Source of the DNA: Triglochin maritima
Taxonomy: Eukaryota; Streptophyta; Magnoliopsida; Alismatales; Juncaginaceae
Reading direction: 5' to 3'
NCBI GenBank assembly: GCA_963682175.1
Contig: OY821772.1
Coordinates: 48,878,925 to 48,942,924, forward strand
Length of the DNA: 64,000 nt
Shown: in pieces, positions 7,430 through 52,026 of the stretch
Layout: every line of letters starts with the position of its first letter
Position numbering within the stretch: the stretch's first letter is position 1
The notes under the pieces: generated by a model
What the model was told of the DNA's origin: nothing
The model's database searches: none
Seen by the model: the letters and a program-made list of their open reading frames with translations, nothing else
Translations under genes and position numbers: made by a program

Positions 7430-7703
7430 ATTCGAAATTTAAATTCCAAATTTAATTTCAAGAACTAATTACAAATATATATTTTTATTTTCGTTTTTAT
7501 ATATATATATTTTATGTTTTTTTTCAAAAGGGAAACAAACAATAGAATGGGGAAAGATGAGAAAGGAATCCTAATCTAGAGAATTTAGGTGAGAAGAGAA
7601 AGAAGACTCAGATGAGAAGGGAAACCTAACTTTAAAGATAGAAAGGGGTTGGTTAGAAAATTTCTAAGAAAGCATGGTTCAAACAATCCTAGACCTAGTG
7701 TCG

Positions 7704-8930: not shown

Positions 8931-8935
8931 TGTCG

Positions 8936-9800
8936 CTTAGATCTAGACGACTCCTAACTGGTTGAGTCGAATCGATTTACTTGATTCACCTCCCTCACTA
9001 ATCAAACCAACTTGGCCAGACCGTGTATAGCTAGTGGGGGCGCTTCCGACAGAGTCGGTGCCAATTAGACAACCACTTCGCTTGGAAGACTTACGTCAAC
9101 ACAAAAACACTTTCTAGACACCAAATTAAATTCAATCGGCTTCAGGTCATAGCAAGTCAAACCAATTCTTCTCCTTAAATGAGTCTAAGTCCTTAGGGGT
9201 CAATGTCTAATTGATTTTAATTTAAGGCTTGGGTGACACTTTAGGATTGTGATTTGTGGGCCACGGAAGGGTGATGAAATTCCCACCGTATCTTTGCCTA
9301 CGGAGTTGCCCTTAAGATAGTTTAACTTAGATCTAGCAAAGATAGTCAAACAATGGTCTTTAGAGGGGGGGGGGGGCAATTGCAAGGTTGTATGCAAACA
9401 AAATTATATGCCTAAATGCAATCAATAAAAACCGCGATACGTACCTTGACTCCAGCACTCTTCAACAAGAATTAATTTGCAAGAATTTAGCAAGAATAAT
9501 GCATACAAAACACTAAATGATGCATGCACTAAGGCCTTTCTAATTTTGCCAATTTTAGGTCAGAGTTGAATTATTGCCAATTATGGAATTTTGCCTCAAC
9601 ACATGCAGTTCTACGAAAAGGAAATTTTCTGAAAATAGAAATTACGAGGAAAAAGGCAACAAAGGTTACCTACGCAATGCTCAGTCGGGTTCGCCGCCCG
9701 CTCTCGAAATTTCAGTAGCTCTACACGTCCACCCAGAGATGAGTCGCGTCCCAGAAAAAGTTGAAGCCCAGAAGCTTCAGGGAGATTCGGTCAGGATCGA
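8936..9800. other. Unassigned retrotransposon leader sequence
   Basis: Non-coding sequence between the solo LTR and the plus-strand gag relic. It is either leader of the minus-strand element or 5' leader of the plus-strand element; the junction is not visible. A run of 12 G lies at 9365-9376. Confidence 0.5.
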
Positions 9801-13671: not shown

Positions 13672-14228
13672 GGATCGACTTTTGTGCGGCTAAATCGCCG
13701 CAATTTGTACATGAGGTGTGGCGGAATCGCCACCTTTTTGGCTCGGATTCGATCCGGATTTTTCCTGTGTGTTTATGGTATGATTTGATCCTCCTTTGCG
13801 CGTCTGGATTGATTCTTTCCATTCTTTTGAGCTCCGGATTAATTCCTTCATATATTTGGAGATCCACATTGATTTTTCTTTATATTTTCTCCAAGATAAT
13901 AAAAGCTACTCGTGATTTGCAATTAGGTCCTTGTCTTTTTGCAATTAAGTCCCCGGCTACTTTTGTGCTCAAGTCCTTGTTCTTTTTGTAATTAGGTCTT
14001 TGAATGCTTTTATGCTTGGATACATTTCCATTTGAAACCCGATAATCTTGAGCTTGGTCTTTTATGATGGAAATGAGTCTTTTGCACGCGGTTATGCTCG
14101 GGATGTGGGTAAATTGCATTCAGGTCCCTGTATTCTGTAAATAAGACTAAACACATACCTTAGTAGCATTTATTGATGTAAAAGTAATCTAAATGAAAGA
14201 CATATGATGCAATGTATGCAATGCATCA
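13672..14228 (-). repeat. Truncated 5' LTR of the gag-protease element
   Basis: These 557 bases correspond to 3204-3760 of the 3' LTR with only scattered differences. The rest was removed together with the left end of the plus-strand element. The ATGAT duplication follows immediately. Confidence 0.88.
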
Positions 14229-14233
14229 ATGAT

Positions 14234-14916
14234 CCCCGATTGGGCACCTATCTTGGGATGTTGACCGACTGGGCTACGACTCCGTCGAGGTGGTGTAGAC
14301 CACATGGTTCTTTGCGCGAAAGTGCAGACACTCCTCACCGATCCCTTTGGCTCGAGTAGTCGCTTATGGGGGGTGCGTCGCGTACTGTCCGTAAGACCGT
14401 ATGTGCCTACGGTAGGTTTCCGAGGGAGACCCGTTGTTGTTGCGGTACCGATGTCCTTGTGAACCATGTTGAGGGTACATGTGTTGGACTGAGGTCTCGT
14501 TTACCCTTTGAGGGATTTGATGCATTGCAGATGTAATATGACATGCTACTAGTATGATAGGTTCATTTACCGTACTGTTGCATTCATATAGGCGAGCTTG
14601 ACATACGGGGTTTCCTAATGGAAAACTCAGGCATCATTGTTTGATTCATGTTTCAGGACCGCAGTAGGTTCTGTCGGGTGGTGACAGCGGGCACACACAT
14701 TTTGGGGTCAGGATCCTCTTCGGACTCTTCGAGGTCGTCGTAATTGCTTGTACTTGTCTTTCGTTGTATTGTTGTAATCACGTCTTTTGACAAACTCTGT
14801 TGTATTTGGTGCACCGACTGTTGATTTATATGAGTAACATGTCCTTTGATGAGTTTTATCTGATAATCTCTTGATTGTTTAATTTTTTAAAATTTTCGCT
14901 ATTTCGGGATGTTACA
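14234..14916 (+). repeat. Chromoviral 3' LTR, right part
   Basis: This resumes the LTR interrupted at 2531. It shares GACTCCGTCG and a following block with 22800-23300, and ends CTATTTCGGGATGTTACA, the same terminus type as the LTR ending near 23445. Base 14917 onward is non-LTR sequence. Confidence 0.75.
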
Positions 14917-15152
14917 ATTTGTGTGTGTTAATTGGAGGTTCAATCTTAAAACCTGAGGTTATGATTTCAATTTATGTGATTTCAATGTGCGCCCAGGGGC
15001 AAGTTCATTTTCTATGTCGCACAACCTAACATGTAAATTTAGACACATCATTCTCGTTGCCAAAGATTGGTATGGTGAACTAGTGTGCCTCAATAATTTT
15101 TGATAGACTGGACGTGAGGAAGTTAAATGTCATAATTATTTGAGAGATAAGA

Positions 15153-15380
15153 TGTAGAAAACTAGACACGGATTTGAGAAGAAGGAAGAAAAGAGAAAAA
15201 GCTTTTTTGGTTTTTATTTTTGTTGTCTGTCTCTATTACATTCGAACTGTTTAGTATATATTGATACATTATTTCCGTTGGGCTGGTTGTAGCGAGGAGA
15301 TGCGTCTTTAATTTTGTTTGTTTGTCGAGGAGGTGTGACTTTAATGTTGGTTGCTTCGGATACTCCCCCTGTCTTCAATA
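15153..15380 (-). repeat. 3' LTR of the copia element
   Basis: 228 bp; near-identical to 19829-20057. The purine tract CTTGAGGGGGAG (minus strand, 15381-15392) abuts it. Confidence 0.95.
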
Positions 15381-15387
15381 CTCCCCC

Positions 15388-18300
15388 TCAAGTTGGGTCC
15401 TGAAATAAGTTGAAGAGACCTAACTTGGAAAGGATGTGGTTTGCTTGAGGTTGATCAAGAGCTTTGGTGAAAATATCAGCGAGTTGATCGTTGCTAGGAA
15501 CATAGGGAACTTCTATTTCTTTGGCCTGGATCTTCTCATGGATGAAGTGGCAGTCAACTTCAATGTGTTTGGTTCTTTCGTGAAACATTGGGTTTTGAGC
15601 TATGTGTCGAGCTGCATTGTTGTCACAGAACATTTTTATTGGGAGGTGGTAAGGTTGTCCCATGTCGAGGAGTAGTTGCCTTAGCCAGATTAGTTCGCTG
15701 GTAGTGGATGTCATAGCCCGGTATTCAGCCTCAGCACTGGATCTGGCAACAACCGTTTGCTTTTGCTGCGCCATGTTACAAGGTTTCCTCCAACAAATGT
15801 GCAGAAACCTGTAGTTGATCTTCGATCGTGACTTCCTGCCCAATCTGCATCAGAGAAACCAGTTATTGAATTAGAATTGTTGTTTTTCATCCATAATCCT
15901 TGTCGTGGAGTTTTCTTAATATATCTAAGTATCCTAGTGATTATATCTAAATGAGGTGTTCGAGGTGAATGCATGAATTGGCTGATGATGCTAACAGCAT
16001 AGGTTATGTTTGGTCTTGTTACAGTGAGGTATATGAGTTTCCCGACGAGTCTTTGATACTGTTGAATGTCTTTTATGGGTTCGCCTTCAGTGGTGTTTGT
16101 TTTTAGTTTAGTTTCCATGGGTGTATTTGCTGGTTTGACTCCAAGTTTGCCTGTTTCTTTTAAGAGATCAAGGGCATATTTCCTCTGAGAGAGAAAGAGA
16201 CCCTTCTTTGAATGAGCAATTTCTATTCCTAGAAAATACTTTAGTTGTCCTAGGTCTTTAATATCAAATTTTGCTTTTAAGTGTTGTTTTATTTTGTTGA
16301 TTTCATACATGTTGTTACCAGTGATTATGATATCATCTACGTATACTAGAATGATGGTGGTGATAGTCTGATGATGTTTGGTAAACATAGATGCGTCAGC
16401 GGAAGACTTTTTAAAACCGTAGGAAAGAAGACAATAGCTAAGCTTGGCATACCAGGCACGAGGGGATTGTTTTAATCCGTAGATGGCTTTGTTGAGTCTG
16501 CAAACCTGATTTGTTGAGGTGTAACCGGGTGGAGGAGTCATATATACTTCTTCCTCGAGGTTTCCTTGAAGGAAGGCATTTTTTACATCCATTTGATAGA
16601 GTTCCCAATTTCTATTCACGGCTATAGAGAGTAAGACACGGACTGTGTTCATTTTTGCTACTGGGGCAAAGGTTTCTAGATAATCTAGACCGTAAGTTTG
16701 TGTGTATCCTTTTGCTACAAGTCTTGCTTTGTATCTTTCTATTGTCCCATCACTATTGTATTTGATTTTATATACTCACTTGCATCCTACGGGCTTAATT
16801 CCTTTTGTGATTGGGGTTAGGATCCAGGTGTTGTTTGTCTCAAGGGCTTGGATTTCTTCTTCCATGGCCTTGCACCACTTTGGATCCCTAATGGCCTCAT
16901 TGTAATTCTTTGGTTCTATGTGAGTATCTATAGTTCCTAGAAAGGCTTTATGATGTGTTTTTACTTGTTGGTATGATAGGTATTCCTGGATAGGATAAGT
17001 GACGTGAGAGGTGATATAGTTGTGCAGATATTTTGGTGGGCGAGTTGGTCGAGTTGATCTTCTTGGAATGTTTTCTTCTTCGTGATCGGATGGAGCTCCA
17101 TTGTCTTCTTCTTGAAGATCAGATGTCCTTGCGGTGATCTCAGGATCGCAGGTGATGGGTATTGGTGTGTCAGCGGAGTTAGGTGGTACTGGAGGTCTGT
17201 TGTTTCCATCTTCTGGGCCGAAAAAAGGACTACTTTCTACAAACTGTACATCCCGAGAAGTATACAATTTACAATTTTCTGGGTCATAACATTTATACCC
17301 TTTTTTGTTAAAGGAATATCCTAAAAAATACATTTGCGAGAACTGAAATCAAGCTTGTCATCTCTTTTCTTGTAAACAAACACAATACACCCAAAGACTC
17401 GTAGATGATCAAGTAAAGTTTTTCGACCAATCAGAATTTCTAAGGGTTGTTTGTTTTGGAGACGAAGACTAGGTAGTCGATTAATAAGGTATGCAACAGT
17501 TAAAACAGCATCGGACCAAAACCTTTTTGGAACGTGATTTTGAAAGAGTAGTGAACGTGTTATATTCAAGAGATGACGATTTTTCCTTTCTGCTACACCG
17601 TTTTGTTGTGGTGTGTCAACACAAGTGGTTTGATGAAGGATGCCTTTTTGTTTTAGAAAACCTTGAAAAATATTACTAGTGTACTCGGATCCATTATCTG
17701 ACCTTAAGATTTTAATTTTGAAATCATACATGTTTTCCACAAACTTTGTAAACGTGCAAAAAATATCAAAAACTTCAGATTTTGATTTTAATAAGTAAAT
17801 CCATGTAGTACGAGAAAAATCGTCGATAAAGGTGATAAAATATTTGAACCCATTGTAGGATTCAGTTGGGGCTGGTCCCCAGATATCAGAGTGTATTAGT
17901 TCTAATGGTTGTTTTGTTTTAATAGATGATAAATGAAATGATGAACGAGTTTGTTTTGAGAATCTGCATACATCACATAATAAATCCGTCTTAATAGAAG
18001 GAAAAAGCGATTTTAAAACAGAATGCGACGGATGTCCCATCCTTTTATGCCATAACACATGTTTGGAAAAGTTCCCAGCATGTAATGCATGTATATTTTG
18101 ATCTAAGATATAAAGATTATTAGCAAGTTGACCCCTACCAATCGTCTTCCCGGAGGTACGATCCTGAAATACAACATCAACAGGTGAGAAGATAATATTA
18201 CAATTTAATTCTTTTGTGATTTTTGCAACAGATAATAAGTTTGATTCAAAAGAGGGGACATACAAGACATTCTTTGCAATTTTATCAAGTAATTTCATAT

Positions 18301-19696
18301 TTCCTTTTCCTTTTATTTCTACTTGGTTTCCATTAGCTACACTTACAAAATTATTTAGTAGAGATATGTTCTTTTTAAGATCTAGTAGTAAATTTTGATT
18401 TCCAGTCATGTGATCAGTGGCGCCGGAATCAATAACCCATATATTACTTTTCCTTTTTTCAGATTGGAGAGCTAAAGAATAATTTTTTAGAGCTTGTATC
18501 ATACCTGCCGAATTACCTGAAACGGAAGGTCCATTGTGCAAAAAACCATTCAATTTGTTTATAAGGACATGGATGTCCTCCTCTGAGCCCATTGGGCCTG
18601 TGCGGTTTTGATCCGCGGCTTGATGATTTATATGGTTGTTTGGTGAGAATAATCTCCTGGTGGTCGGGTTCGGAGTCGACCCGAATGTGCCATCCGGATT
18701 CGCAGAAGTATTTAAACCTCGTGATCCGACTGCTGACATTCCGAATGCTTCCTGCGAAAACAAATTAGGGTTAGGTAGGTGGCTGCCGCTGCTGCCTCCT
18801 GTGGCGGCGATGTAGCCGCTGCCGCCCGATGACCCCTCGTGCAATGAACTTCTCCCATCTCCTCCTCCTCTTCTGTTGTTGTCTTTTGGTGGTCGGAGAT
18901 GAGGATGAAGAAACCAGCAGTTGTTTTTGTTGTGTCCGGACTTTTTGCAGTTTTCACAATGCTCGTCCTTCCAATTTCCATATCGTTTTTTGTTGTTTTG
19001 ATGCTGGTTTTGTGTTTTTCCGGAAAAAAACGCTTGATTCTCGGCTTCGGTTGTTGATTGGGTTTGTGACGGAGTGATGGTCCTTCGCCGCGATTCTTCG
19101 CGAAGGATCATCGCGATGACAGCGGAAAGAGACGGTAGTTCGGGGGCCATGAGCACCTGACTTCTGATGTTTTCAAATGATGGGTCCAGACCTACCAGAA
19201 ACTGGTAGATCTGGTTTTGTTCAGTTCTTTTTTTGATTGTCCGTGCGTCGTCTGTTGGTGGCTCATAGATCCCCAACTCGTCCCATGCCTTCCTGAGAGT
19301 ACCGAGGTACTCAGTGATGCTTTTGTGGTTTTGACGGGCTTGAGCGATGTCTTGTTTGAGTCTGAAGATGTGCGCGAAGTCTTGCGCCTTCCCGAAATGT
19401 TCTTGGACCACATCCCAGAGTTCTTTTGTGCTTTCTTTGTAGAGGAAGATCTCCCCTATCTGTGGTTGCATGGACGCGATTATCCATGACATGACCAGGT
19501 GGTCGGAGGTCTGCCATTCTTCCTGTTTTGCCTCCGTTTCTGATTCCTCCGGTTTCTTTGCAGCTTCAGTGATGTGGCCGACTTTCCCCCTGCCGCCGAG
19601 GGAGAGGGAAACCGCCCGCGCCCAGGACAGGTAATTTGTCCCGTTTAGTAGTGTTGATACGAGACGGGAGGGGTTTTCGTGGTGGTTTCCCGACAT
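15388..19696 (-). pseudogene. Ty1/copia gag-pol polyprotein with three breaks
   Basis: The start at 19696 gives MSGNHHENPSRLVS followed by the gag-like LNGTNYLSWARAVSLSLGG. In order there are a zinc knuckle CENCKKSGHNKNNC, protease WVIDSGATDHMT, pre-integrase LWHKRMGHPSH, an integrase core with D, D and E (HSDIWGPAP, RSDNGSEYTS, NGVAERKNRH), reverse transcriptase with YVDDIIITG, and RNase H with ARSSAEAEYRAM. Breaks are a one-base loss in a T run (plus-strand A run 17323-17328, after SSRKCIF), a TGA for tryptophan at 16776-16778, and a one-base loss in an A run (plus strand 15761-15764) before RNase H. All domains are otherwise full length. The copia lineage was not assigned. Confidence 0.95.
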
Positions 19697-19816
19697 GGTT
19701 TTGGTGGTTTTGTGTGTGGATTTTTTAGGGTTTTGGATGTGGGTTTTGTGCCTTCAACCCCCTCAGTGAGGTGAAGATCGGTGATGATTTCTTGGGGGAT
19801 CTGAGATCGAGTCAAT

Positions 19817-19828
19817 GCTCTGATACCA
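19817..19828 (-). other. Primer-binding site (initiator tRNA-Met)
   Basis: The minus strand reads TGGTATCAGAGC directly after the 5' LTR end TCTACA. This is the standard plant copia primer site. Confidence 0.95.
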
Positions 19829-20057
19829 TGTAGAAAACTAGACACGGATTTGAGAAGAAGGAAGAAAAGAGAAAAAGCTTTTTTGGTTTTTATTTTTGTT
19901 GTCTGTCTCTATTACATTCGAACTGTTTAGTATATATATGATACATTATTTCCGTTGGGCTGGTTGTAGCGAGGAGATGCGTCTTTAATTTTGTTTGTTT
20001 GTCGAGGAGGTGTGACTTTAATGTTGGTTGCTTCGGATACTCCCCCTGTCTTCAATA
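19829..20057 (-). repeat. 5' LTR of the copia element
   Basis: 229 bp; the partner of 15153-15380. The target duplication TAAGA follows at 20058-20062. Confidence 0.95.
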
Positions 20058-21289: not shown

Positions 21290-23445
21290 TTTTAGCAATT
21301 ACATAGTTGCCACTCTTAAATCCCTAAACCTAGATTAGGGCTAACCCCGGATTAGGTGGGTTTTGACTTGGATGTGATGGGGGCGTGGAGGGGGCGTACG
21401 TGAGGTGATGGTGAAGGGATGGAGATACGAGAGGGGTTGGTTTGGCTATAAGAGAACACCACACACCTCCCTTCTCTTCTTCTTCCTTCACAAACCTTCT
21501 CCTCTCACTCATCCATTCTCCCTCAGGCGTGCGGCCACCAGTGGTCGGAGGTGACAGGCAGAACTTCGATCAGCAACATCAAGGAGGCAGCTAAGAGTGA
21601 GACCGGCAAGGCACGAGGAGGCAAGACGAAGGTTGTCGGCATTAAGCGAGCTCCGACGAAACTCCGGGAAAGAAGAAGGTATGCCAAGTTCATTGCATTA
21701 GAGGCTACTCACACAAGTGTGTGTGTGAGGTTTCGCTCTTCGTCGAAGGTCGGAGACCTTGTCAGCGACGATAAGCAACAAGTGGTGCTTGGCAAGGCCA
21801 GGTAGTTGCCAAATGACGGTCGACCGATGCTTATTTGTGGTCAACCGGTCTTAGTGTATTCCGATGTCTCTACCCAGCATCAGTCGAATGATGTCTTGCG
21901 TTGGTCGACCGATTGTGCCCTTAACTCTGATCTGATCGGTAATTTAAGTGTACTGCATTGTTGGTCGACCTATCAGATTCGAGTTCGATCGTTAGTAAAT
22001 GTAGGAGAGACCCTGATTTCGGTCGAACGGAGCCCCTGAGCCGTTCGGCCATTGCCTTGTTTTGATTAGTCTTTGACTACGCGTTGACCATCTAAACGGT
22101 CGACCGCTTATGATATCTTGTTCGGCTGTTGGGGCTTAAGTTATGATTGCCTTGTTTTGATTAGTCTTTGACTGTCCGTTGACCATCTAAATGGTTGACC
22201 GCCTATGAGATCTTGTTCGGCTATTGGGGCTTAAGTTATGAGCCCAAAGTTTGACCGATGCAAGCGTATGTTCGATTGATTCTTTGGGAGAGGTCATCCG
22301 ATTTGTCTTTTTTTGGTCGACCGTTTAGGCCTAGGAGTAAGTCTTTGTATTTGTGGAGTGTCAACTCTGTCCACGGAAACCCATATCTCGCCTGAGCCGG
22401 GAGGTGACAATGGGTGCGTTAATCGTGTCTACCCAGGGACCGTCAAGTGGAAGAGTGTTGACACTTAGGACATGCCCTCTCTGTATTATATATCGTGGCA
22501 TAGTATATGCTTACTTGACTCTTATTAGATAGTAGACCTGAGGGATAGCGGATCCAAATACACGATGTTGCATGGCTTTACGGAGTGAGATGACCTGACA
22601 GACTTAGGTCCAGATGAATCGATTGGTCAGCCTGCGGGAGACGGATACCTTCGACTGGCCTTGAGGGCGATGATGTGCCCATGCGCGACCGAGTGGCGGC
22701 AAGGAGACCATGTGGCATGTGTGGCGGCGGTGATTGATCAGCGATGTATTCTGACATGTAGTTTGACTGTGGCACAACCAGATGTGATTGACCGACCTGA
22801 GCGACGACTCCGTCGGTGAGGTGTTGACCTCGAGATTCAGCTGCTTCTACTACTGACGTGGAAGTACGGGCACCCATCGCTGAACCATATGATTAGTGTA
22901 GCCGTTTATGGGGTGCGTTGCGTACTTTCCGTAAGATCGTATGTGCCTACGGTAGGTATCGGTGAGACACCCCATGATGGATTGTGGGACAAATGTCTTT
23001 TTTACCCTTGGAGGGAATGTTGATGGATACGCATTGTATCTTGGCATGTTATACTAGCAGGATATGTTCATTTCATTGTACTTTAGCATGGATATAGGCG
23101 AGATTGATATACGGGATTTCCTTATGAAACTCAGACATTGTTGTTATATTTTCATTTCAGGATCGCAGTAGGTTTGAACGGATGGCGACCAAAGACGAGG
23201 GCACTCTGGAATCAGATCTTTTATCGTATTTTTCTAGGTTGTATGATTGTTTGTATTTACACTTTGTTGTACTTGATGTAATCGTATATTTTGATAACTA
23301 TTTTATGACTAATGTTCTCATGTTTTTGGATTTTAATCTCTGCGATGTTTGAAATTTTAATCTCATGTTTTTGGATTTTAATCGTATATTTACACTTTGT
23401 TTGAAATTTTGAATTTTCTACTATTTCGGGAGATCGCAGTCAACA
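21290..23445 (+). repeat. Chromoviral-type LTR, probably solo
   Basis: Related to the split LTR at 582-2531 plus 14234-14916. Shared blocks include GGTCGGAGACCTTG (about 21736), TGTCAACTCTGTCCACGG (about 22361), the GACGACTCCGTCGG block (about 22803) and a terminus with TACTATTTCGGG (about 23418). CTATAAGAG near 21450 is the likely TATA box. CGGTCGACCG palindromes lie at 21817-21826 and 22097-22106, with variants to 22322. No internal region adjoins it. Outer boundaries are approximate and I found no clean target duplication. Confidence 0.6.
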
Positions 23446-26130: not shown

Positions 26131-27195
26131 TAGGGGTGCACACGGGTCGGGTTGGGTCGGGTTGGGGCTGAAACCCGACCCAACCCGAAATTTTCGGGTT
26201 AGGGAAATACTCAACCCGAACCCGAACCGATTCGGGTTGAACCCAACCCGACCCGAAATTTTCGGGTTGGGTCGGGTTGGACCCGTAAATTCCTTATCCA
26301 GCAAAGTAAGCACAAATTCAGAGTTTCAGACAACCATAACCAACACCTCCAACCACCGACATCATCAATTCTAGCACAAAAAACATGAAGAAAAACATGA
26401 ACCAAATCACCAAAGGCCAGATCATCAAAGGCCAGATCACCAAATCTGGCTTAGAAAAGCAAATCTTAGAAAGTAACCCCTCACCTGGCGGTGTTCCCAA
26501 TTCCAGACGGAGACGTGGTCGGAGTCGTCGGCGATGGCGAGCTAGGGTTGGGTCGGGTGCACTGGATCGGCTTCCCACAGTAAAATCTGTGGATAATAAA
26601 TAACAACATGGTGTTTAGAAGATAAAATAAGTCAACAACCACTATGTATGAAAGATCACCTACCACTCGACATGGAAATCAAAGCGTGGATCTGGAGAGA
26701 ATCGTCGGGCGGGACTTGAGGACGGTGGCGAGGTCGGGACCGGAGACGCCGACGGATCGGAAGAGGGAAACGGAGGATTCGACGCGGGCGACGTCGTAGT
26801 TGAGGAGGGAGGGGTTTCGGCGGAGGGTGTGGAAGAGGAGGGCCTCGGAGGGGAGGAGGGAGCGGAGGAAGGCAACGTGAAGGCGGAGAAGGGAGGAGAG
26901 AGTGGAGGCGTCGCGGAAGAGGAAGCGGGGGAGGCAGGTGAGGAGGTGGAGGAGGTCGAGGTGAGGGAGGATGGGGAGGAGAACGAATGGGGATTTGGGG
27001 ATTTTCGTTGGATTTTAGGGGTTTATGCGGTTTCGGGTCGGGTTGGGTCAACCCGACCCCTACAACCCGAACCCGACCCGAAAATTCGGGTTTCAAAAAA
27101 TTTTAACCCAACCCAACCCGAAACACCTACCAACCCGACCCGACCAGTCGGGTTCGGGTCGGTTTCGGGTTCAACCCGACCCGTGTGCACCCCTA
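26131..27195. mobile_element. hAT-like non-autonomous element A carrying a gene fragment
   Basis: 1065 bp with terminal inverted repeats TAGGGGTGCACACGGGTCGG and its reverse complement, and a perfect 8-bp target duplication ACTAGGGG at 26123-26130 and 27196-27203. Both ends are packed with AACCCG/CGGGTT repeats (26141-26285 and 27035-27182), as expected of hAT subterminal transposase-binding repeats. The interior is GC-rich, unlike its surroundings, and holds an mTERF-like fragment. Confidence 0.9.
26679..26970 (-). pseudogene. mTERF-like gene fragment captured in a hAT element
   Basis: In the minus-strand frame ending with TGA at 26679-26681, the translation contains FHTLRRNPSLLNYDVARV followed by VGVSGPDLATVLKSRPTIL. 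This spacing of NPSLL, FxxSxGVSGPDLAxVLxxxP is typical of plant mitochondrial transcription termination factor (mTERF) repeats. About 97 codons are open without an ATG. The open frames in the other phases, with long proline runs, are shadows of this GC-rich stretch. Identification rests on motif recognition by eye; a captured fragment rather than a gene is inferred from its position between transposon ends. Confidence 0.7.
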
Positions 27196-27798: not shown

Positions 27799-29599
27799 TC
27801 ACTTTAGAAATCCAATTAATTATATCACATATTTATTTATCATAACTTATTATAATTAAATACAAATATTTACGGATAACTCAAAATATAATTAAATTAT
27901 GGTGGATTTGACTATTGTAATGTAATCTACTATTATACTCAAAAAAAAAAATTCTGTTATTAGTATGTACTTCCTATGTGTTGGGTAATTACATTTTATC
28001 TAATGAAATATTTTTTGTTTTTATTATTATTTATGTCAAATAATTATTTTTAGTAACACTTAACCAAATAAATTTAATAAAATTAATTACAAAAATGTAA
28101 TTTCTAATTAAATTTGTCAAATTTAATTAACATTACAAAGTAATTAATATTATTAAATTAATTACAACAATTTTTTTGTTGTTTTTAAAAAAATCATTTT
28201 CAATCTTTTTTTAAAATAATTTTTTTAAATGTTTTATTTTTAACAAAAAATTATGAAAAAGATGTGAGGAGAGAGAGTGTTGAAAAATTAGATTGTTTTA
28301 TCTAATAAAAAAACTTAATATCTCTATCACGCATAATAAATTATTTACAACTAAATAAAAAACAATAATAATTAAAACAAAAAACAAAACAAAAAAAAGA
28401 CAAAAATCATGAGACCTGGCAGTCCCATGATTTTTTTGCACTCCCATTGAGGGGGTGTTGTAAATGCCGACGTAATTGAACCAACGATATAATGTCGGCA
28501 TTTCTGCGGGCGACTCTCTTGAGGGTGCTCTAATAATTGAACCAGCGCACTTATTGTTGATCAACCGTGGCCACGAGAAAAGACAATAGACAACGCAGTT
28601 TTTCTCCTCATCTGGAAATGAAAGACATGAGAAAAGACGCCCGACACAAGGGACCCTTACCTCTCGTTCTAGCAATTAGTAACCACACAGTTATTTCATA
28701 TCGGGCATGGTCGCAGCTACAGCAAGAAGATTCCACGTTATCATATGTCCTTTCACAAAAGTGAGGAATCTTTCCCCCCCAAGACTCTGGAGAATCTAGT
28801 CTAGTTTTAAAACAATAAAAAATGATAATTTTAAAATAATAAACCAGGTATATTTTGAGTATTAACCTCGTGGTGCAGGAAACAAAAAGGTTTTACCGAT
28901 ATCACCTTTTACGGCATCTGTTATGTGGGTGTTTTACTCTTATGCGCGGAGATCAGGTTACGTACGAAATTATCAATCGTTTATCTTCTAACTCCTATTG
29001 TAGATTATCAATCATGTTCAGTGTACCTATATATGCTAGGATCTGTTGCTTGGAAATTAAGGAAATTAACATTTGCCATCCACGCATTTGGAGCATTATC
29101 AGATATAGATCGCTGTAATTGGTGCCGTTTGTTGGTGCACATGCCTACATTTTCTAGATAGATAGATAGATAATCAAAAAGCCTACAACGTGCCTGTTTT
29201 AGTTCGATTATTTTTTATGCGCATGTATGACTCCAGGAAATATAAAATTAGTCACCGGTCCCCACTTACCCAGGGTTCGTTTGGATGCATGTCGGGAATC
29301 GAGTCTAGAATGTGAAGAAATTACATAAAGACCCAGACGCAAATTTGCATATTCAAATAGCTTTTTGGCGTCAGGGTTTGGGGCGTCCGGGGTGGCGAGT
29401 TTGTACGAGAAATGAGTTGTTGTTTTTTTGTTGAAATTTGGCACTTGCATTAATTAAAGGTTGACATGCCATGACATCTGAAAAGGTTTTACAAAATTGT
29501 TAAAAGTTTTACAAAATTGTTCCTTTTATGGGAATCCTAGCCCATAATAGGCATAAGATTGCAGAAAGGAAACACGTGGATAAAAGAACAATCTTAACA
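27799..29599. other. Intergenic AT-rich sequence
   Basis: Very AT-rich from 27800 to 28430. A perfect 10-bp inverted repeat, AAATGCCGAC and GTCGGCATTT, with a 22-base loop lies at about 28465-28506. I recognise no gene. Confidence 0.5.
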
Positions 29600-36578: not shown

Positions 36579-36677
36579 GGTAGTAAAAAGGGATTGAAAT
36601 TTCAAAATGATTAATATTTACGAAAAAAATGTTCTATTACAATATTTGGTGTTGCTACAAGCATAAAATGTAAAAAA

Positions 36678-36974
36678 TTAGATAAATTACAACAATATCG
36701 TTAAGAAACAACGAAATTGGATTTATGCTATCTGAAAATATTTATTTTCATTAATGCCACGGAAAAATCCAAAAACTTATTTTTATGTCATTAACTAGTT
36801 TCCAATGTCATTCTGTTAGTCATCCCTTAACTTCTCCGTTAACGGCCGTTAATTTTATTAATGGCATGAGAGCAAGTTTTTTGTATTTTTCTGTGGTATA
36901 AGTTGAAATAATTATTTTCAGATGGTATAAATCCAATTCCGTTGTTTCTTAATAGTACTGTTGCAATTCACCTA
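36678..36974. repeat. Long inverted-repeat (fold-back) MITE
   Basis: Two arms of about 110-140 bases match in inverted orientation: AAGAAACAACGAAATTGG near 36702 against its counterpart CCAATTCCGTTGTTTCTT near 36929, with GTTAACGGCCGTTAAT near the centre. No coding content and no clear duplication. Confidence 0.7.
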
Positions 36975-39302
36975 ATATATTTTTCCACCAAAGTTTAGGG
37001 TGATGAAATCGTAAAGTTGATGGAACTAAAATTATAGGACCACATAAATGTTACTATTATTATTGAAGAAGTTTCAGTATAAAATTCATATTAATGAAAG
37101 GTTTACAGGGACAATATTTGAAACAAAACGTAGAGCAAGGATTTACATGGAATAAGCCGATATTGACAAGAAAATCAAAAGGCAAAGGAATTTGCACCAA
37201 CCAACGTGGAGCGCAATTTTGCAATAAAGGCAAAATATTATATTAGATAAGGGCAATCACATATTGGTAACATACATTTAGTTAAAAAATAAGACGATTA
37301 AATTGCAAAATGACGATTGAGGTGGGGTGCAAATTATATTGGAAAAAAAAGAAAGAAACTACGGGAGGAATATCTTTCGGGAACCACAAGAACCATTCGT
37401 GTATCCCATCGTTCGAAAGTAGAAAGATTAATAAAAAAAGCGGCCATATGTAATGTGACGCATGATTTGGAATCATGTAGGGAGTATGATGAAAATATCC
37501 CGTCCCGTAAGTTTTGAATGGAAATAAAATAAAATAAATACGCGGTCTGGTTCGATTCGGTGTCGTACTCATTAAGTGCAGGTGTATCAGAATAAAAATA
37601 GGCGAGGAGGAGGAGTGGAACACGTACAGAACAGAGGAGTGGTGGACACAAAACTCCCCTTTTTCTTCTCCGGCGATTCCAACCATCGTTCTTCTTGTCG
37701 TCGCTTCGTCTGCATTGCGGACTTCTTCGGATCATAGAAACCAGTGAGGACATGTTAATTATTCCAACGTTTTCGGATTTCTTCGACTTTTGGTTTTGGA
37801 TTTCGGTTGTTTTTGTTTTAATTTTTTTTTCGGTCGTGAAATGCTTCTGATATGTTGGGTCTTCTGAGCTTCTCCGACGTGGATTCATGCTCTTTTCGGG
37901 CTTGGATAAACTAGTTTTCATCTCATTCTGAGTTGTTTTCTCTGATTTAGAATCGATTGATTTTTTTTTATATTTCCTTTTTAAGAGAGATTAATTACTT
38001 CGCATGAAGTTGAGAAAAGCTTAGAAAAGTATGTATGTTTTTTTGATGGAGCGAAGAAAAGTTTTAGGATTTTTTATATAATATAAATTGAAGGATTTTT
38101 TTAGTGTACAAATACATGAAAGTGTGGAAGCCAGAGAATTTATCTATAGTACCGTTTTTGAAGTCTTGTTTAGGTTTTTCTGCATGCCGATCACGAAAAC
38201 TCATCTTTGAAGTTCAACTCGCTCACTTTTTGATGTCTTCTCACATTATTTTAAAGCGAAGTTATAGAATACTCTACAATGGAATCATATCAACCGTCTT
38301 CAGCGCACCTGAGCAGTTAAATTTTTGAAGCGAGGGCGGATGTTAATGTGAACAAATGGACTGACCTGTGGAGAAATATAGTTATACGTGGTTAGAACTG
38401 ATTGGACGCTCACGACATAGTTCTGTCTACTATCTCCACGGTACAAATTGGTCATGTAATCTCAGCACAGTGGTCATTTATCATTCGAACAGTGTGTGAA
38501 AGCATCAAATCCTCCTTTTCCTCCAACATGTTAGAACATGCGGTTATCCAAAAAAAATGTTAGAGCATGTGCTACTTTCTACTTTTGGTCAATATCCTGA
38601 ATTATCTTCTAAAATATTTCTGTTTAATATGTGCCAAGTAAATTCAGAGAAGTTGAAGCTCCTGTCAAGCAACTTGCTATATGTTTATATATATTTAGCC
38701 CAAGGGTGATTTGAGTTGGAGATGATGTGGAAAGGACGTCTTGGGCCCATTTGACTGGAGAGTGGTTACTGTAATTAAAGACCGAAGAAAAACATATAGC
38801 TCTGGACTTATAGCTTCCATTGGGCTCATCTAGTGTTTTAGTTTTTTTCTTCGTATTTCAATCTCAATGGTTCATACACTGTCATTTAGTAAGGATCGCA
38901 TTAGCATTATATTCGTGTTAGTGGTACTATTTATAAGGAAAATAAGATGAAAATCTTCATTTTTTTAACAAATATACCACAATTCTTTCCTACAAAGTGG
39001 GCCAGACGATAAATCTTTCCTTTACTCTCTCTTCCCCTCCTTTTGAATGTCAGAACTGCAGTAATGTTCTAATTAAGAAAGACCAGGATGTTCGATGTTT
39101 AGAGATCATTCATGAATTTCAGTTTTCTTATCCAAGTTCATTAATTACATTTTTAATAATCATATCTGATTATACACGATTGATATGATTATTTAGTTGA
39201 GCCTATTATTTTGATTATAGGAAATAGCTCTGGTAAGTGATAACTTCAAGAAAATGTTCTTGCTTTCAACTCAATTCTGCTGTTTTTTCCAGCAAGCAAA
39301 GG
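36975..39302 (+). other. Upstream region and probable leader intron of the SPX-MFS gene
   Basis: A pyrimidine-rich, 5'-UTR-like stretch lies at about 37610-37740. A consensus acceptor TGTTTTTTCCAG ends at 39292, ten bases before the ATG, so the start codon probably sits in a second exon after a leader intron with a donor near 37745. I searched by eye for a miR827 target site, present in the SPX-MFS leaders of many plants, and did not see one. Confidence 0.45.
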
Positions 39303-44407: not shown

Positions 44408-46328
44408 CATAATGCCTTCCGACCGAGCATCTAATAATAGCTTACATCTCTGAGTTGTATATGCAATTAGACGCCATACCCTGTCCTTGTATCCACTTTA
44501 TATCAGACAGATTAATATATGAGATTAATATATGTCTACTTGTTGATGTCAAATTCATTCTTTCCTTCACACCAACATATATTTGTTGCATCTGATTGCA
44601 TTCTCATGAAGCTTAATGACAGAGGATTGTGTTGTAATTTATCAGAGGTCATTTCAGAACTCATATCATTCTACCGCGCAAAATATAACTGAAGTAAGTA
44701 GAACGTGAAGCAAAAAGGTATGCAAATGGACTTAATTTCTCTGAACTTTGAGAGATACTGAGTTGGAACGAAGGAAGAGAGGGGGAGGAAGTGTTTGTTT
44801 TATTGCCTCCCTTAATGATGACTAATCACAACTTTTATATATGGGTTAATTGGTTACGTTGCTTAAAACCTAACCAGGTTCCTTACAGTCCTATAAATAT
44901 TAAAACAAATGATATTAAAACCTAACCATTGTTTCGTTTGCAATAATAAATGAAGGGTTCTAACTTCTTATCACGACAAAAGTATGGCTCATTAAATTCT
45001 AGTTTTCAACAACTGATGGGCAAAGAAAATATTTTACCAGCGTGAACGAACAGAAGATTACTCCACGAATGCCTACATTTAATGAGATGGTGGGAACTGG
45101 GAAAGATGGTTGACACTGCACACTAGTTTGGGAATCTAAGGTCTGTTTGGATGATCAAAAACTAGTCAGTTTTTAGTTTGTGTGATTTGACATAAAGTGG
45201 AAAATCAATTTTTTATTCTTAAAATTGATTTTTCGTTTTATGTCAAATCACAGGAGACAAGTTAAAAACTATCATGATATTTTTTACATCCAAACAAAAC
45301 ATAATTATAGTTGGTTTGTTCTTCCCACGTATAATCTCGATAATAATCCATTCTGCAATAAGTTATTCTTTTTAAAAAAAAATCTTAATATTGGATGTCC
45401 ATTCTGAACCCCCTTCTCAGTCTTCGTTGAGGGCTACACCTACTTACGTGGAGACGGGAGAGGTTAAAAATTTGTGAGTCTTGTGAATTGTGAAGGGCCT
45501 ACTATAATTTAATAATCTTCAGATCCAATTTGGTTGGTATATATATATTAAACAAAATCGGATCATTAATAAAAAATTAAAACCAAATGGGCCTAAATGA
45601 GCCGAGCTCAATCCCCTAAATTAATACCATTATATACACCTCAAACATTTATTACGAACATACCTGGGCTGGCACATTACTTTTGATGGGATGGTAATAG
45701 CTTTATCAAAACAAAAAAAATGTAGGATGGTAATCGCCGGTGTACACAAGGAAGATACCATAGAACCGATTTTTGTATCGACATCACGTCTAATTGATCA
45801 TTCTTTTATGATTTCAACGTATTCTATTTGAACTCAAAATGACTCCTCACATAATCAAAATGAAACATACCAACCCACAAGGCTATAATATTCATAAAAT
45901 TTTAGAAATAAAATCAAGTTGTGCCCATTCGAGTGGGCCCACTTAATTCTTAGCTGAAATAAGTTTGGTGCATGCAATCCCTATGCCTCCATAATAAAAC
46001 TAGAAACGAATATAGTAGAGAAGTCTAGACGTATGAGACCATTTGTTTGGTGTTGGAGAGAGTTAAGGAGCTACAAATCTTTAAATGTGGTTGGTAATAT
46101 CGGTAGGAGTTCTTTGCACCCCCAATGTTGGTGCATTCATGAGATTTTGCCTTGCGCGTAGAGGACCTAGAGGTTAGAGCTAACAAGTCTATAAAAAGCA
46201 TGCCAAGTAATTGGTCTATGAAGTGTTGGAGTACACGAAGAAGGAAAAATAGAATAGTAGGTTAATTAAAGTTTTCAATATTGTGCTCTTTAATTTGTTT
46301 GCTGTGAGTCTCTTATTGACAAGACTAG
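44408..46328. other. Intergenic: SPX-MFS 3' flank and GMC gene promoter
   Basis: Contains the SPX-MFS 3' UTR, a small MITE (45140-45301) and the upstream region of the next gene. No other gene recognised. Confidence 0.5.
45140..45301. mobile_element. Small hairpin MITE, Tourist-like
   Basis: About 160 bp folding back almost completely: TGATTTGACATAAA near 45182 against TTTATGTCAAATCA near 45237, and AAAATCAATTTT against AAAATTGATTTT. Termini are GGTCTGTTTGGATG and its degenerate reverse complement. TAA flanks both ends, fitting a PIF/Harbinger duplication. Confidence 0.75.
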
Positions 46329-49300
46329 ATGAGTGGGGATTGGAGGCTGGGTATGGCGGCTTTGGTAGTTGGAATTCTTTGCTTAGCTGGTTGCGGCAAC
46401 TCAGAGAAAGGTGCTGTTCAGTAGCAATTGTTATTTATTAGGAATATATTAGATTGCATTAATTAGGTATACTCTAACATGTCAAAATTGCTTTAATAGT
46501 AATTACATGTCAAAATGATATCAGGCATTTGAAAGAAGAAAAAACATCCTATATATCTATTCTTCTTCGATCTTCTTCTTTTGACAAGGTAAAAAAACAT
46601 CCTATGTTTGTGGATGAGTGTAACTTAAAAGGTTTTCAACTAAGAATCAATTATTCACGCGCTCTTATATATCTTCCAAACATGAAATATATTCATGCGT
46701 AGATTTGATTTGAAATCTTAAAATATAATTGGTTGTGAGTGAGTCACAATAAACTACGTACTTAATCTTAAAACCAGATTTCTCAAATTATGAACTTCTA
46801 CCCAAAACTCAATATATATCATGCTCTAAAGACACGAAATCAAACAAAAAAAAAATGGTACCATTATTTTGAGGAGAATTATACGACAATTACAGCTATA
46901 TAACAAATATATATTGTTGGCTAATTTTTTTTTTCCATGCACGCATACACAACAGCTCCCAACTACAGCTTCCTCCACGACGCCACCACAGCGCCCTCAA
47001 TCTCCTTCTATGACTACATAATAATCGGTGGCGGCACGGCCGGCTGCCCACTAGCCGCCACTCTCTCCGAGACCTCCTCGGTGCTAGTCCTCGAGCGCGG
47101 CGGGTCCCCCTACGGCAACCCCAACATCACCAACCTCGCCTCCTTCGACGCCACCTTGGCCGATACCTCCCCCACCTCCGCCTCCCAGCGCTTCGTCTCC
47201 ACAGACGGCGTCATCAACGCCCGCGCCCGCGTCCTCGGCGGCGGCACCTGCCTCAACGCCGGGTTCTATACTCACGCCTCCCCCGATTTCATCAACAAGT
47301 CCAGGTGGGACCCTGACTTGGTTTCCCAGGCGTACCGGTGGGTCGAGCGGTTGGTGGCGCACGAGCCGCCGATGCTGGCGTGGCAGTCGGCGTTCCGGGA
47401 TGGACTCATTGAGGCCGGAGTGACGCCTTTTAATGGATTCACGTTTGAGCATATTTATGGGACTAAGGTTGGGGGGACTATTTTTGATAGGAGAGGGAGG
47501 CGTCACACGGCGGCCGACTTACTGGAGTATGCCCGCCCGGAGGGCATCAACGTCATGTTACGTGCCACCGTACATCGTATACTATTCCGTATCAAAGGTA
47601 CAAAAAATTTGATTAGTCCACCACTTCTTTTCTTTGAATGCGTAGACAATTTTGTGTGTGTGTGTGATAAATTTGGTATAAGTATATATATGATGATGAT
47701 GATGTCTACTGTCTCACAACATCATCGATTGTGTAGCAAATTCAAAACCAATCGCACGTGGTGTGGTTTTCCGAGATGCCCAAGGGAGAAAGCACAGAGC
47801 CTACTTGAATAAGGGGGCCAACAACGAGATTATTCTCGCGGCCGGAGCAATCGGAAGTCCGCAAATTCTAATGCTAAGTGGCGTAGGACCGGCCGAGGAA
47901 CTATGGTCCAAGGGAATCACGGTGGTGGTGGACCAGCAAATGGTGGGACAAGGCATGTCGGACAACCCCATGAACGCGATTTTCGTGCCATCGCCTGCTC
48001 CAGTGGAGACGTCCCTTATTGAAGTGGTGGGCATCACTCATGTCGGTAGTTTCATTGAAGGCGCCAGTGGTCCCAACTTGACTGGCAGACCGGACCGGAG
48101 AGACTTCGGCATGTTCTCCCCTCAAGTAATATATATTACTCATCAACATTTTCTTCTTCTTCTTCTTATTATTATTATTATTAGCGAATGATATGGATAT
48201 TGATAATTCCATCAATACCTCAAAATGATTCATTGTGTCACTAGTACCATCCAATTTTCTAATTTTACTGACCGTGGTGCTAACCTAAAGTAGATTCAAT
48301 TTTCTACGAAATTGACTTTAAATGCTAATTTCCCACTTCACCATCATATAGTAGTGCAAATGGCTTGATTTTGAATAATATTATGATATTTAACACACAA
48401 AAACAAATTCATGATTATTGGTGATGGAATTGAAAATGTACCTCAATTTGACTTACAATACCCAAGATAATGAAGAGTAATTGAAATATATTGGTGATAT
48501 GTTGAATTATTAACATATTGTCGTATCAATATCTTCTAATATCAAATAAAATTCATTCGCAAGCATTATTATCACAACAAATTAATTCGATGCATGGACA
48601 TGAACGTAGACGGGACAACTCTCCACAGTCCCACCGAAGCAGAGAACCCCAGAAGCCATCGCTCGTGCCGTGGAAGCCATGAACCGCCTCCCGGCGTCCT
48701 CCTTCAACGGCGGCTTCGTCCTGGAGAAGATCGTGGGCCCGCTCTCCACTGGCAACCTCAGTCTCGACACCCTCAACCCCGACGACAACCCGGCAGTGAC
48801 CTTCAACTACTTCAGCGACTCGAGGGACCTCCGGATGTGCGTGAGCGGGCTTGAGACGATCGAGAGGGTCATTGAGTCCCCATCTTTCTTGCCGTTCCGG
48901 TACCCGTCGTTGTCCCTCCGGGACATGGTGAACATGACTTCCAATTATCCGGTGAACCTCCGGGCGAGGCATGATAATGACTCTAGCTCGCTCGAGCAGT
49001 TCTGCCGGGACACCGTCATGACCATCTGGCACTACCACGGCGGTTGCCACGTGGGAAGGGTTGTCGATGCCAAGTACAGGGTTATCGGCGTCCAAGGTCT
49101 TAGGGTTATCGACGGATCAACGTTTCACTCCTCGCCTGGGACTAACCCTCAAGCCACCGTCATGATGCTTGGAAGGTCAGCACTCAAATTTTCTGGTTAT
49201 GGTTCGTACGTAGTTAAATTAATCGGTAGATTCTTGATTTTGAAATAATAATTTAATTTTTTTTACGAAGTTCACGTTTGATCGACTCTTATATACATTT

Positions 49301-49452: not shown

Positions 49453-50489
49453 TCGACTCCCATTTGTCACTGTTCCCAAATAACCAAATGGTGTAGAGCA
49501 TCGATCTGGTTCATTTTATTGATGTTTAATTTGTACCTTAATTCGTAATAAGATTTGTTGTTGTCACGGTAGTCGTCAAAAGTTGTTTATTCATATATGA
49601 GCCTATTATTGTTGTCATGAAAGTTGTTTTTTATGTAATCTGTTGGAAGACGAACGACGTGAATATATATATAATATGATATTTAAATTGAATATTTGAA
49701 GAAATTAATGATGTGTACATTCTGTAATCCGAATGCCGCAACTTCCAAATGTAATTCTTAGTCTTCAATTACCCAGGCCGCCAATCCAATATATCTCAGC
49801 ATCATGACTTAACATTTTTTAAATGGTTGACGCACAGGGCAAGCTTGAACTTTGACCCGTGTGTAAATTCACGTATCCTATCCGCAATTTAATACGACGA
49901 TCGATCATACTTAATTGCACATATAAATTGTTTGCGGTAAGACCTAAAAGCGAGTATTACAGTCTTACAGAAAATGCTAGATATATAGCTCTTGTAGATC
50001 GTAGAATAACTAAAATAAGAGATTGTGTTCCGACAAATCGAGTTGCATCATGCCAGTAAGTTCGATTAATGTGTAAAGGACAGTACAAAAGGAATATTAT
50101 TAAAGGATATACCTCCAAAATCCAAATACCCTCTCCAAAACTGACTTCTTTTTTTGACATAACGATCAAAAGCATAATATACGTAGTCATCACTCCTCTA
50201 ACAAGGATTCCTCTAGTTAATGAAGTGGGATGTGTATCAAAGGTGCATGATATGGGGAATATGGCATACTGATCAATAAGTGATTGACAAAAGCATTGGA
50301 CTTTTACAGACATAGGCCAAAACTGAAAAGGACTCTACACTCAAAAAAGATGGATATGCCATGGTATAACCCTTCTCTCTTCCTGCAGCATCTGCCTTCC
50401 ATTTTCTTGGGGCATTTTCATATATACCCTCCAAATAGCTCCAAATTCTATCATTATCTTCCAACATCACATAATATCTTACGGAAACT
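49453..50489. other. 3' flank of the GMC gene and intergenic sequence
   Basis: No gene, tRNA or clear transposon recognised before the left inverted repeat of the fold-back element. Confidence 0.5.
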
Positions 50490-50697
50490 ACTAAACGTCG
50501 CCCCAAAACTACTTAAATCGCCCCTTGAAATTACCAAATTGCCCTTAACAATATATTTAATACCCATATCGTCCCGTGTCTTTAAACAAGGTTATTGACT
50601 CAGTTTTACTAACATTCCTAGTACCAACACCACGAAAATGTCTGGCGAAACACCTAGACCAGGCGAAGTAACGGAGGCGGATTTTTTTTTCCGACAC

Positions 50698-50916
50698 GAG
50701 CGTCTGGCTAAGACGCCTGTACCATCGTGGAGGCGTCTGGCTAAGACGCCTCCACCATCGTTGAGGCGTCTTAGCCAGACGCCTCCACGATGGTGCAGGC
50801 GTCTTAGCCAGACGCCTATACCATTGTCTAGGCGTCTGGTTAAGACGCCTCGACCACGGTGGAGGCGTCTTAGCCAGACGCCTCCACGATGGTACAGGCG
50901 TCTTAGCCAGACGTCC
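50698..50916. repeat. Palindrome array 1, seven units of 33 bp
   Basis: Units start at 50698, 50731, 50764, 50797, 50830, 50863 and 50896. Each is a 21-base near-palindrome of the type GGCGTCTTAGCCAGACGCC or its reverse complement, followed by a 12-base spacer around ACCATCGT or ACGATGGT. Unit orientations run F F R R F R R, and the spacer after unit 1 is the exact reverse complement of the spacer before unit 7. The whole array is therefore one large palindrome centred on unit 4. Confidence 0.95.
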
Positions 50917-51044
50917 CATTTTTTTTATTTTTTTTTTCAAATTAAAATTATACGGTGTGTTATCTCAAATTATTTGACGTTTCTTTGCAAGTTTTCGGTG
51001 GTAACCGGTCGGATTACAATGAGTTTTTTTGCAAGTGATAAAGA

Positions 51045-51275
51045 TTCAAAAAAATTCCAGATCCAACATTTTTTAAGTTCCAAATCCCCCGGTGGTAAAA
51101 CATCATGACTTACAAATACCACCTCGACAGGTCGTTCGGGGGTCTCGCTCCCCGGTGAGCGAGCGGCATTCCACCTCGCCGGTGAGGTGGCGGGGGTGGC
51201 AAGGGGGCAGCGCCCCCTGGAAATTTTTTGGATTTTGAAATTGTTGGATCTGGAAATTTTTGAATTTTCGGTGTA
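51045..51275. repeat. Central inverted repeat of the fold-back element
   Basis: AATTCCAGATCCAAC near 51053 pairs with GTTGGATCTGGAAATT near 51243. Inside are GC-rich smaller palindromes (CGCTCCCCGGTGAGCG and CACCTCGCCGGTGAGGTGG, about 51148-51191). Confidence 0.8.
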
Positions 51276-51395
51276 CCGAAGAGGTATCGGTCATCCGAAT
51301 ATAGTAATTATTAACTTATTAATTAATTTAACAATTATCTAAATTTATAATCATTTATCTTTTTAAAAAAATAATAAAAAATAATAAAAAATTAC

Positions 51396-51614
51396 GGGCG
51401 TCTGACGGAGCCGCCCCCACGTAGGAGGGGGCGTCTGGCTAAGACGCCTTCCCCATGGAGGAGGCGTCTTACACAGACGCCTGTCCCATGGGCGGAGCGT
51501 CTGGGTAAAACGCCTCCCCGATGGGTAAGGCGTCTGGGTAAAACGCCGCCCCCATGGGGAAGGCGTCTTAGCCAGACGCCCCCTCCTACGTGGGAGCGGC
51601 TCCGTCAGACGCCC
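51396..51614. repeat. Palindrome array 2, seven units of 33 bp
   Basis: Units start at 51396, 51429, 51462, 51495, 51528, 51561 and 51594. Spacers centre on CCCATGG or, at the ends, on TACGTRGGAG-type sequence. The left arm from about 51390 is matched by the right arm to about 51620 with almost no mismatches, and AT-rich flanks extend the pairing to about 51355 and 51655. It differs from array 1 in spacers and outer units. Confidence 0.95.
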
Positions 51615-52026
51615 GTAATTTTTTATTATTTTTAATTATTTTTTTATTAAAAAGATGTTAGATGTTTTACCAGATTCGAGTACACTGGGGCGTCCGTTAG
51701 TTCATTACTGACCTCCAAAACATTATTTTTTATGATTATAAGAGGAATATGAAGAGAGATGTGTGATAGGAGGGTAAAATGTCGCGTTATAGCAGTAGAA
51801 ATGAGAGAAGGGCAAAATGGTAATTTCAAGGGGCGATTTAAGTAATTTTGGGGCGATGTTTAGCAATTCAGTATCTTAGACGCCTTTCAATTTAACTAAG
51901 AACTTCCATTATATATTACCTTCTCTTGGACAACTGAGTCGTTGGTTGACTGCCTTCTAGCTAGTACTCACTATGATGTCAAAATGGTGACCTGAAGCTT
52001 ATAAAGCAAACATGTAATACAATTTA

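What the first reader, a model, noticed from the sequence alone, without database searches (positions are those of the whole stretch)
50490..51863. Fold-back element built from two exact 33-bp-period palindrome arrays
Seen directly: seven units at exactly 33-bp steps from 50698, and again seven units at exactly 33-bp steps from 51396, each unit a near-palindrome around GCGTCTnnGCnnAGACGC. Each array is itself a palindrome of about 220 bases, both sit between 56-base inverted repeats, and the centre has its own inverted arms. The period is three helical turns and a multiple of three, and no indel has disturbed it in either array, which suggests either recent expansion or selection on phasing. 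Array 1 and array 2 differ in spacers (ACCATCGT versus CCCATGG), so they are not simple copies. I recognise no described family. Possible roles are a transposase-binding platform, a hairpin small-RNA source or a replication-slippage product.
Basis: seen in the sequence. Interest (0 to 1): 0.88.

Follow-up and report, generated by a model that had tools for sequence, protein, structure and literature searches.

The report
Plant transposon with phased palindrome arrays
This looks like a small non-coding jumping gene in a plant genome that carries two sets of seven evenly spaced, mirror-image DNA motifs; the motifs have changed less than the DNA between them, as protein-binding sites would, but only one copy could be examined.

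Summary
Two seven-unit arrays with an exact 33-bp step (50699-50915, 51397-51613) lie between ~60-bp inverted repeats in plant DNA. Each array is also one ~217-bp palindrome centred on its fourth unit (88% and 87% of 108 pairs; elsewhere in the window at most 51% about bases and 59% between bases). New here: a likely target-site duplication, TATCTTA (position-constrained chance rate 0.0037), suggesting a non-coding transposon of ~1.39 kb, perhaps Mutator-like. The GGCGTCT/AGACGCC arms hardly vary (8 of 196 cells off consensus) while spacers do (44 of 168) (column permutation p about 0.005), and no indel breaks the phase. I read the arrays as made by fold-back copying and kept as multi-copy binding sites; both steps are inferred, the second less surely. 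Each array folds more stably as one long hairpin, so hairpin-RNA or purely structural readings stay open. Eleven host-genome searches did not complete, so copy number, superfamily and an autonomous partner are untested.

The parts
50475..50481 (+). Probable target-site duplication, left copy (TATCTTA; 9-bp version AATATCTTA at 50473-50481)
   Evidence: Exact 7-bp match to 51872-51878 directly outside the inverted repeats; 0.37% of random position pairs do as well with ends free by 3 bp; without the position constraint 3.0%
50482..50546 (+). Left terminal inverted repeat
   Evidence: (I13), 10, 11: 56-61 bp, 90-93% complementary to the right end; the outermost bases 50482-50485 are placed by inspection
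50699..50915 (.). Array 1: seven dyads GGCGTCT-n5-AGACGCC, exact 33-bp period, whole array a palindrome about 50807
   Evidence: DNA fold of 50690-50940 -123.4 kcal/mol as one long hairpin, z -28
50940..51356 (.). Central region with inverted arms 51049-51084 / 51226-51261 around a G+C-rich core
   Evidence: I19; fold
51357..51396 (.). A-rich left extension of the array 2 hairpin stem
   Evidence: I3, I18; paired in the fold
51397..51613 (.). Array 2: seven units, exact 33-bp period, whole array a palindrome about 51505; departures of unit 1 from consensus are mirrored in unit 7
   Evidence: DNA fold of 51357-51656 -157.5 kcal/mol, z -30
51614..51656 (.). T-rich right extension of the array 2 hairpin stem
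   Evidence: (I3, I18)
51808..51871 (-). Right terminal inverted repeat
   Evidence: the outermost bases 51869-51871 are placed by inspection
51872..51878 (+). Probable target-site duplication, right copy (TATCTTA; 9-bp version AGTATCTTA at 51870-51878)

Best explanation
A ~1.39-kb non-coding, non-autonomous transposon with terminal inverted repeats in a plant, most likely Mutator-like, inserted downstream of a GMC-oxidoreductase (HOTHEAD-like) gene. Each internal array arose by fold-back (inverted) copying of a half-array of 33-bp units about the dyad of the central unit. The arrays are retained because their GGCGTCT heptamers, in inverted pairs every 33 bp (about three helical turns), are binding sites for a dimeric protein. 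That protein is probably encoded by the autonomous partner: a transposase DNA-binding domain, or an anti-silencing factor of the VANC sort. Shown here: anatomy, inverted repeats, probable TSD, palindromy, motif versus spacer conservation. Inferred: superfamily, origin by fold-back copying, binding, the identity of the binder.
For: Inverted repeats plus a direct repeat exactly outside them. Heptamer arms 8/196 off consensus against 11/70 in the centre and 44/168 in the spacer; column permutation with the best of 33 rotations p=0.005, dyad-class permutation p=0.0015 for the arms as defined and 0.008 for the best run. All 28 arm CpGs intact. No indel in either array against 63 cells off consensus. 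The arrays lie at similar distances from the ends, 217 and 258 bp. The longest ORF listed inside the element is 156 aa and runs through array 1; it and its 127-aa antisense counterpart have no Pfam match, and the 156-aa ORF found no relative. Precedents: extra transposase-binding sites in TIR tandem repeats of Galileo (PMC3688188) and VANC target motifs in tandem repeats of VANDAL MULEs (PMC5735166).
Against: One copy only; no binder known. Whole-array pairing is strongly kept (departures of array 2 unit 1 are mirrored in unit 7, 18/19) and energetically favoured, which points to structure at least as much as to local sites. The intact arm CpGs may mean little: the rest of the element is not CpG-depleted either (observed/expected 1.28-1.47 outside the arrays, 1.03 and 0.86 inside, window 0.81). 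The ends align only with a gap (inspection) and the TSD is 7 exact or 8 of 9, so the superfamily is not fixed. The heptamer was delimited after seeing the data. The Fisher value (6e-9) and the indel figures there treat related units as independent, and the indel ratios (0.05-0.2 per substitution, giving 0.04 to 3e-6) are my assumption; only the column tests should be relied on.
Confidence: 0.42

Rival explanations
1. The arrays are passive products: fold-back template switching and slippage built palindromic tandem repeats inside an ordinary MITE-like element, and no protein reads them.
For: Both arrays are palindromic about the dyad of unit 4, the geometry of inverted copying. Internal tandem repeats occur in other transposons without a shown role (PMC4079207, passages; PMC10342631, section 4 part 1).
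Against: Neutral decay should hit arms and spacers alike; arms 8/196, spacers 44/168. Inner and outer palindrome mismatches are unequal (24/112 against 3/104, both arrays pooled), which a single old inverted duplication followed by uniform decay does not predict.
Confidence: 0.33
2. The arrays are hairpin-RNA sources: transcripts fold into ~217-nt near-perfect duplexes that Dicer-like enzymes cut, feeding silencing of the family.
For: The long hairpin beats local hairpins in RNA (array 1 -208 against -123, array 2 -206 against -102 kcal/mol, + strand). The outer arms are nearly perfect (3/104 mismatched). Long TIRs of Mutator-like elements are often siRNA sources (PMC10398659, passage).
Against: Duplex formation needs no 33-bp period, no heptamer conservation and no ban on indels. 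No Rfam family reaches its gathering score in the window. No small-RNA data at hand.
Confidence: 0.15
3. Composite or artefact: the ends and arrays belong to different nested elements, or the assembly has the unit number wrong.
For: The centre (51049-51261) has its own inverted arms, and a partial unit (CTTAGACGCCTT, 51875-51886) lies just outside the right end (D2).
Against: Inverted repeats, TSD and similarly placed arrays fit one element. Two arrays with different spacers, each of seven units, are hard to get by assembly error (inference; no reads seen).
Confidence: 0.1

Closest known systems
Plant fold-back MULEs: MuTAnT (Medicago, PMC4486113, passages seen) and FARE1 (Arabidopsis, as described there)
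   Same: Fold-back structure built from repeated modules; 9-nt TSDs where the MuTAnT site is not a perfect TA microsatellite
   Different: The first MuTAnT copy is a 292-bp element of two 144-bp TIRs, and the family targets TA repeats; here short inverted repeats enclose two separate palindromic arrays with an exact short period
Galileo and Foldback-type elements of Drosophila (PMC3688188, outline, abstract and passages; Tetris PMC4079207, passages)
   Same: Internal tandem repeats towards both ends; in Galileo some carry extra transposase-binding sites
   Different: There the repeats are part of one long TIR at each end; here each array is palindromic on its own, so array 1 resembles array 2 equally in direct and inverted order (70% and 71%)
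VANC target arrays in VANDAL MULEs (PMC5735166 and PMC10398659, passages)
   Same: Short motifs in tandem repeats in non-coding parts of plant MULEs, bound by an element-encoded anti-silencing protein
   Different: VANDALs have degenerate TIRs; 'palindrom', 'inverted repeat' and 'spacing' do not occur in PMC5735166. Whether a VANC gene exists in this host was not tested
SIRC of Arabidopsis (PMC10342631, outline, abstract and section 4 part 1)
   Same: Short direct repeats interrupted by varied spacers, most enriched in MITEs; some repeats contain palindromes
   Different: 2-8 repeats of 10-29 bp with diverse spacers; nested whole-array palindromes are not described in the part read

Membership tests
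Mutator-like elements (MULE) | Target-site duplication of 8-11 bp (PMC6446971, passage) | tested here: inconclusive
   TATCTTA exact (7 bp), 8 of 9 matches for the 9-bp version
Mutator-like elements (MULE) | Terminal inverted repeats, often long | tested here: met
   56-61 bp, 90-93%; not specific to MULEs, but within the 39-292 bp listed for the dicot and monocot Jittery sub-group (PMC6446971, table passage)
Mutator-like elements (MULE) | mudrA-type DDE transposase in the element or in an autonomous relative with the same ends | tested here: inconclusive
   No Pfam match for the two array 1 ORFs of the element; the search for an autonomous relative could not be run
Foldback (FB) elements | Long terminal inverted repeats made of tandem repeats, left and right arms mutually inverted | tested here: inconclusive
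   Arrays 1 and 2 form a 241-nt inverted pair at 72% (I1), but no better than the direct match (71% against 70%), and in the whole-element fold each array pairs with itself
VANC/VANDAL target arrays | Known VANC21 or VANC6 motifs; VANC gene in the family | not tested
   Motif letters were not taken from the papers; no related element or gene could be fetched
SIRC | 2-8 short direct repeats separated by diverse sequence | tested here: inconclusive
   Seven 19-bp repeats per array fit count and length, but spacers are related to each other (within-array mean 77% and 59%) and no SIRC detector was run

The most novel reading that the evidence does not exclude
A plant transposon carries two phased operator-like platforms, fourteen inverted heptamer pairs every three helical turns. 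A transposon-encoded dimeric protein, transposase or anti-silencer, binds them cooperatively, so that phase as well as motif is under selection and fold-back copying is the way such platforms grow.
Probability: 0.2. Interest if true: 0.65.

Novelty: new variant of a known kind. Interest (0 to 1): 0.42.

Why it matters
Few plant transposon families are known to me in which clusters of protein-binding motifs, for mobilisation or for escape from silencing, have been mapped. A non-coding element with two phased arrays in which motif and spacing are kept while spacers drift would make that process readable from sequence, and would join fold-back copying to the birth of binding platforms. If copies show no such constraint, it is another example of palindromic repeat growth inside a MITE.

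Tried and rejected
Protein-coding reading: in each array one + strand frame is open throughout (RRLAKTP-type 11-residue repeats), and array 1 has an open - strand frame too. A 33-bp period makes that easy. The array 1 ORF found no relative at E<=1 (560 candidates) or, for its array part, at E<=10 (299 candidates), and Pfam has none at E<=0.001. The array 2 frame was not searched. The protein collection does hold plant proteins, but arrays in non-coding DNA would rarely be in it, so the blank is weak.

Other copies in the window: none convincing; the best BLAST match outside is 35.6 bits, E 0.002, 77% over 56 bp. Viral contigs and prokaryote genome contigs: 0 exact matches to one array pattern each, as expected for plant DNA; the TIR was not sought there. 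Rfam: no match at gathering score in the window, 4227 families.

Papers holding stretches of the unit, the ends or the G+C-rich centre: 0 (six and five letter strings). Keyword combinations: 0 papers; 33, 8, 4, 17 and 5 papers, of which 20, 8, 4, 10 and 5 were listed. None of the listed titles or abstract starts describes this element. No repeat-family database was available. Other superfamilies: CACTA and Harbinger (3-bp TSD, recalled) were judged less likely by inspection of the ends, with no call made for it; hAT (8-bp TSD, recalled) is not excluded.

Full report
Setting. The window is plant DNA. A GMC-oxidoreductase gene (Pfam GMC_oxred_N and GMC_oxred_C) ends near 49248, about 1.2 kb before the element. 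Of 456 relatives of its C-terminal part (120 listed, most unnamed), the named ones include Genlisea aurea (69% identity), Camellia sinensis (67%) and a HOTHEAD of Platanthera (69%). Copia-type and other LTR-retrotransposon reading frames lie further upstream.

The observation. Two arrays of seven units, with a 33-bp step and no indel, lie at 50699-50915 and 51397-51613. The unit is a 19-bp dyad, GGCGTCT-n5-AGACGCC, plus a 14-bp spacer that is itself partly palindromic (4-5 of 7 pairs). Fourteen of the 15 window matches to the dyad (up to 3 mismatches) are these units, against 0.56 expected. Both arrays are also single large palindromes about the dyad of unit 4: 88% and 87% of 108 pairs. Over 62,484 other centres of each kind the maximum is 51% for base-centred axes and 59% for axes between bases.

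The element. Inverted repeats of 56-61 bp bound the region. Directly outside them stands TATCTTA on both sides, 50475-50481 and 51872-51878. A 7-bp match with ends allowed to slide by 3 bp occurs in 0.37% of 40,000 random position pairs from this window; without the position constraint in 3.0% of 25x25 comparisons. The 9-bp version matches 8 of 9 (null 3.9%, unconstrained). By inspection the outermost bases of the inverted repeats align only with one gap, so the exact ends are uncertain by a base or two. The length fits the 8-11-bp TSD of MULEs (PMC6446971, passages) if one change is allowed, but hAT is not excluded. No ORF over 156 aa lies inside and the two ORFs through array 1 have no Pfam match, so the element would be non-autonomous.

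Motif against spacer. With each segment put in its best orientation, heptamer arms differ from consensus at 8 of 196 cells, the five central bases at 11 of 70, spacers at 44 of 168. Units are related, so the Fisher value given there is too small. Permuting the 33 columns and taking the best of all rotations gives p=0.005; permuting the 17 dyad classes gives 0.0015 for the arms as defined and 0.008 for the best run of seven. Mean identity between arrays, best orientation, is 0.86 for cores and 0.57 for spacers. All 28 arm CpGs are intact, but the element outside the arrays is CpG-rich too (observed/expected 1.28-1.47, arrays 1.03 and 0.86, window 0.81), so this may reflect low methylation or youth rather than selection on the arms. 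No indel accompanies the 63 cells off consensus. Those cells are not independent events and the expected indel rate is my assumption, so I put no firm probability on that.

Results that pull the other way. The long hairpin is far more stable than local hairpins in both DNA and RNA. In array 2 the departures of unit 1 from consensus are mirrored in unit 7 (18 of 19 against its reverse complement), while their own local dyads form 6 and 5 of 9 pairs against 7 in intact units; symmetry of the whole array is there kept at least as well as the local site. Over both arrays the outer 52 pairs of the palindrome are nearly perfect (3 of 104 off) and the inner 56 are not (24 of 112). This suggests correction or renewal of the outer arms, or reshuffling of inner units, rather than one inverted duplication and even decay. 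I chose the split at 52 after seeing the per-unit figures.

Reading. I favour fold-back copying as the origin and binding-site function as the reason for retention. [quoted passage not shown] Neither is shown to apply here. A passive structural product and a hairpin RNA source are serious rivals. 'Recent expansion' is unlikely given spacer divergence.

Limits. Everything rests on one copy. The statement that I found nothing like it in print rests in one open-access library.

Noticed in passing
51875-51886: A 12-bp near copy of part of the array unit (CTTAGACGCCTT) lies at the right end of the element, overlapping the probable target-site duplication (D2); unexplained.
   Followed up: partly
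15146-20057: Copia-type gag/integrase frames (minus strand) between direct repeats 15146-15380 and 19822-20057 that are 98.7% alike: probably a young LTR retrotransposon with short LTRs.
   Followed up: partly
2537-14237: Repeats of 0.5-1.2 kb at 2537-3769, 7709-8930 and 13672-14237 (87-98% alike) around gag frames at 4859-6991 (minus) and 9765-10673 (plus), possibly LTRs of related retrotransposons.
   Followed up: partly
36677-36976: A 300-bp self-inverted segment (71% to its own reverse complement), possibly another MITE; smaller ones at 28067-28163, 26172-26278 and 45144-45296.
   Followed up: no
22051-22241: A 95-bp unit present twice in tandem at 91% matches.
   Followed up: no
46937-49248: GMC-oxidoreductase gene in pieces on the plus strand, HOTHEAD-like.
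   Followed up: partly
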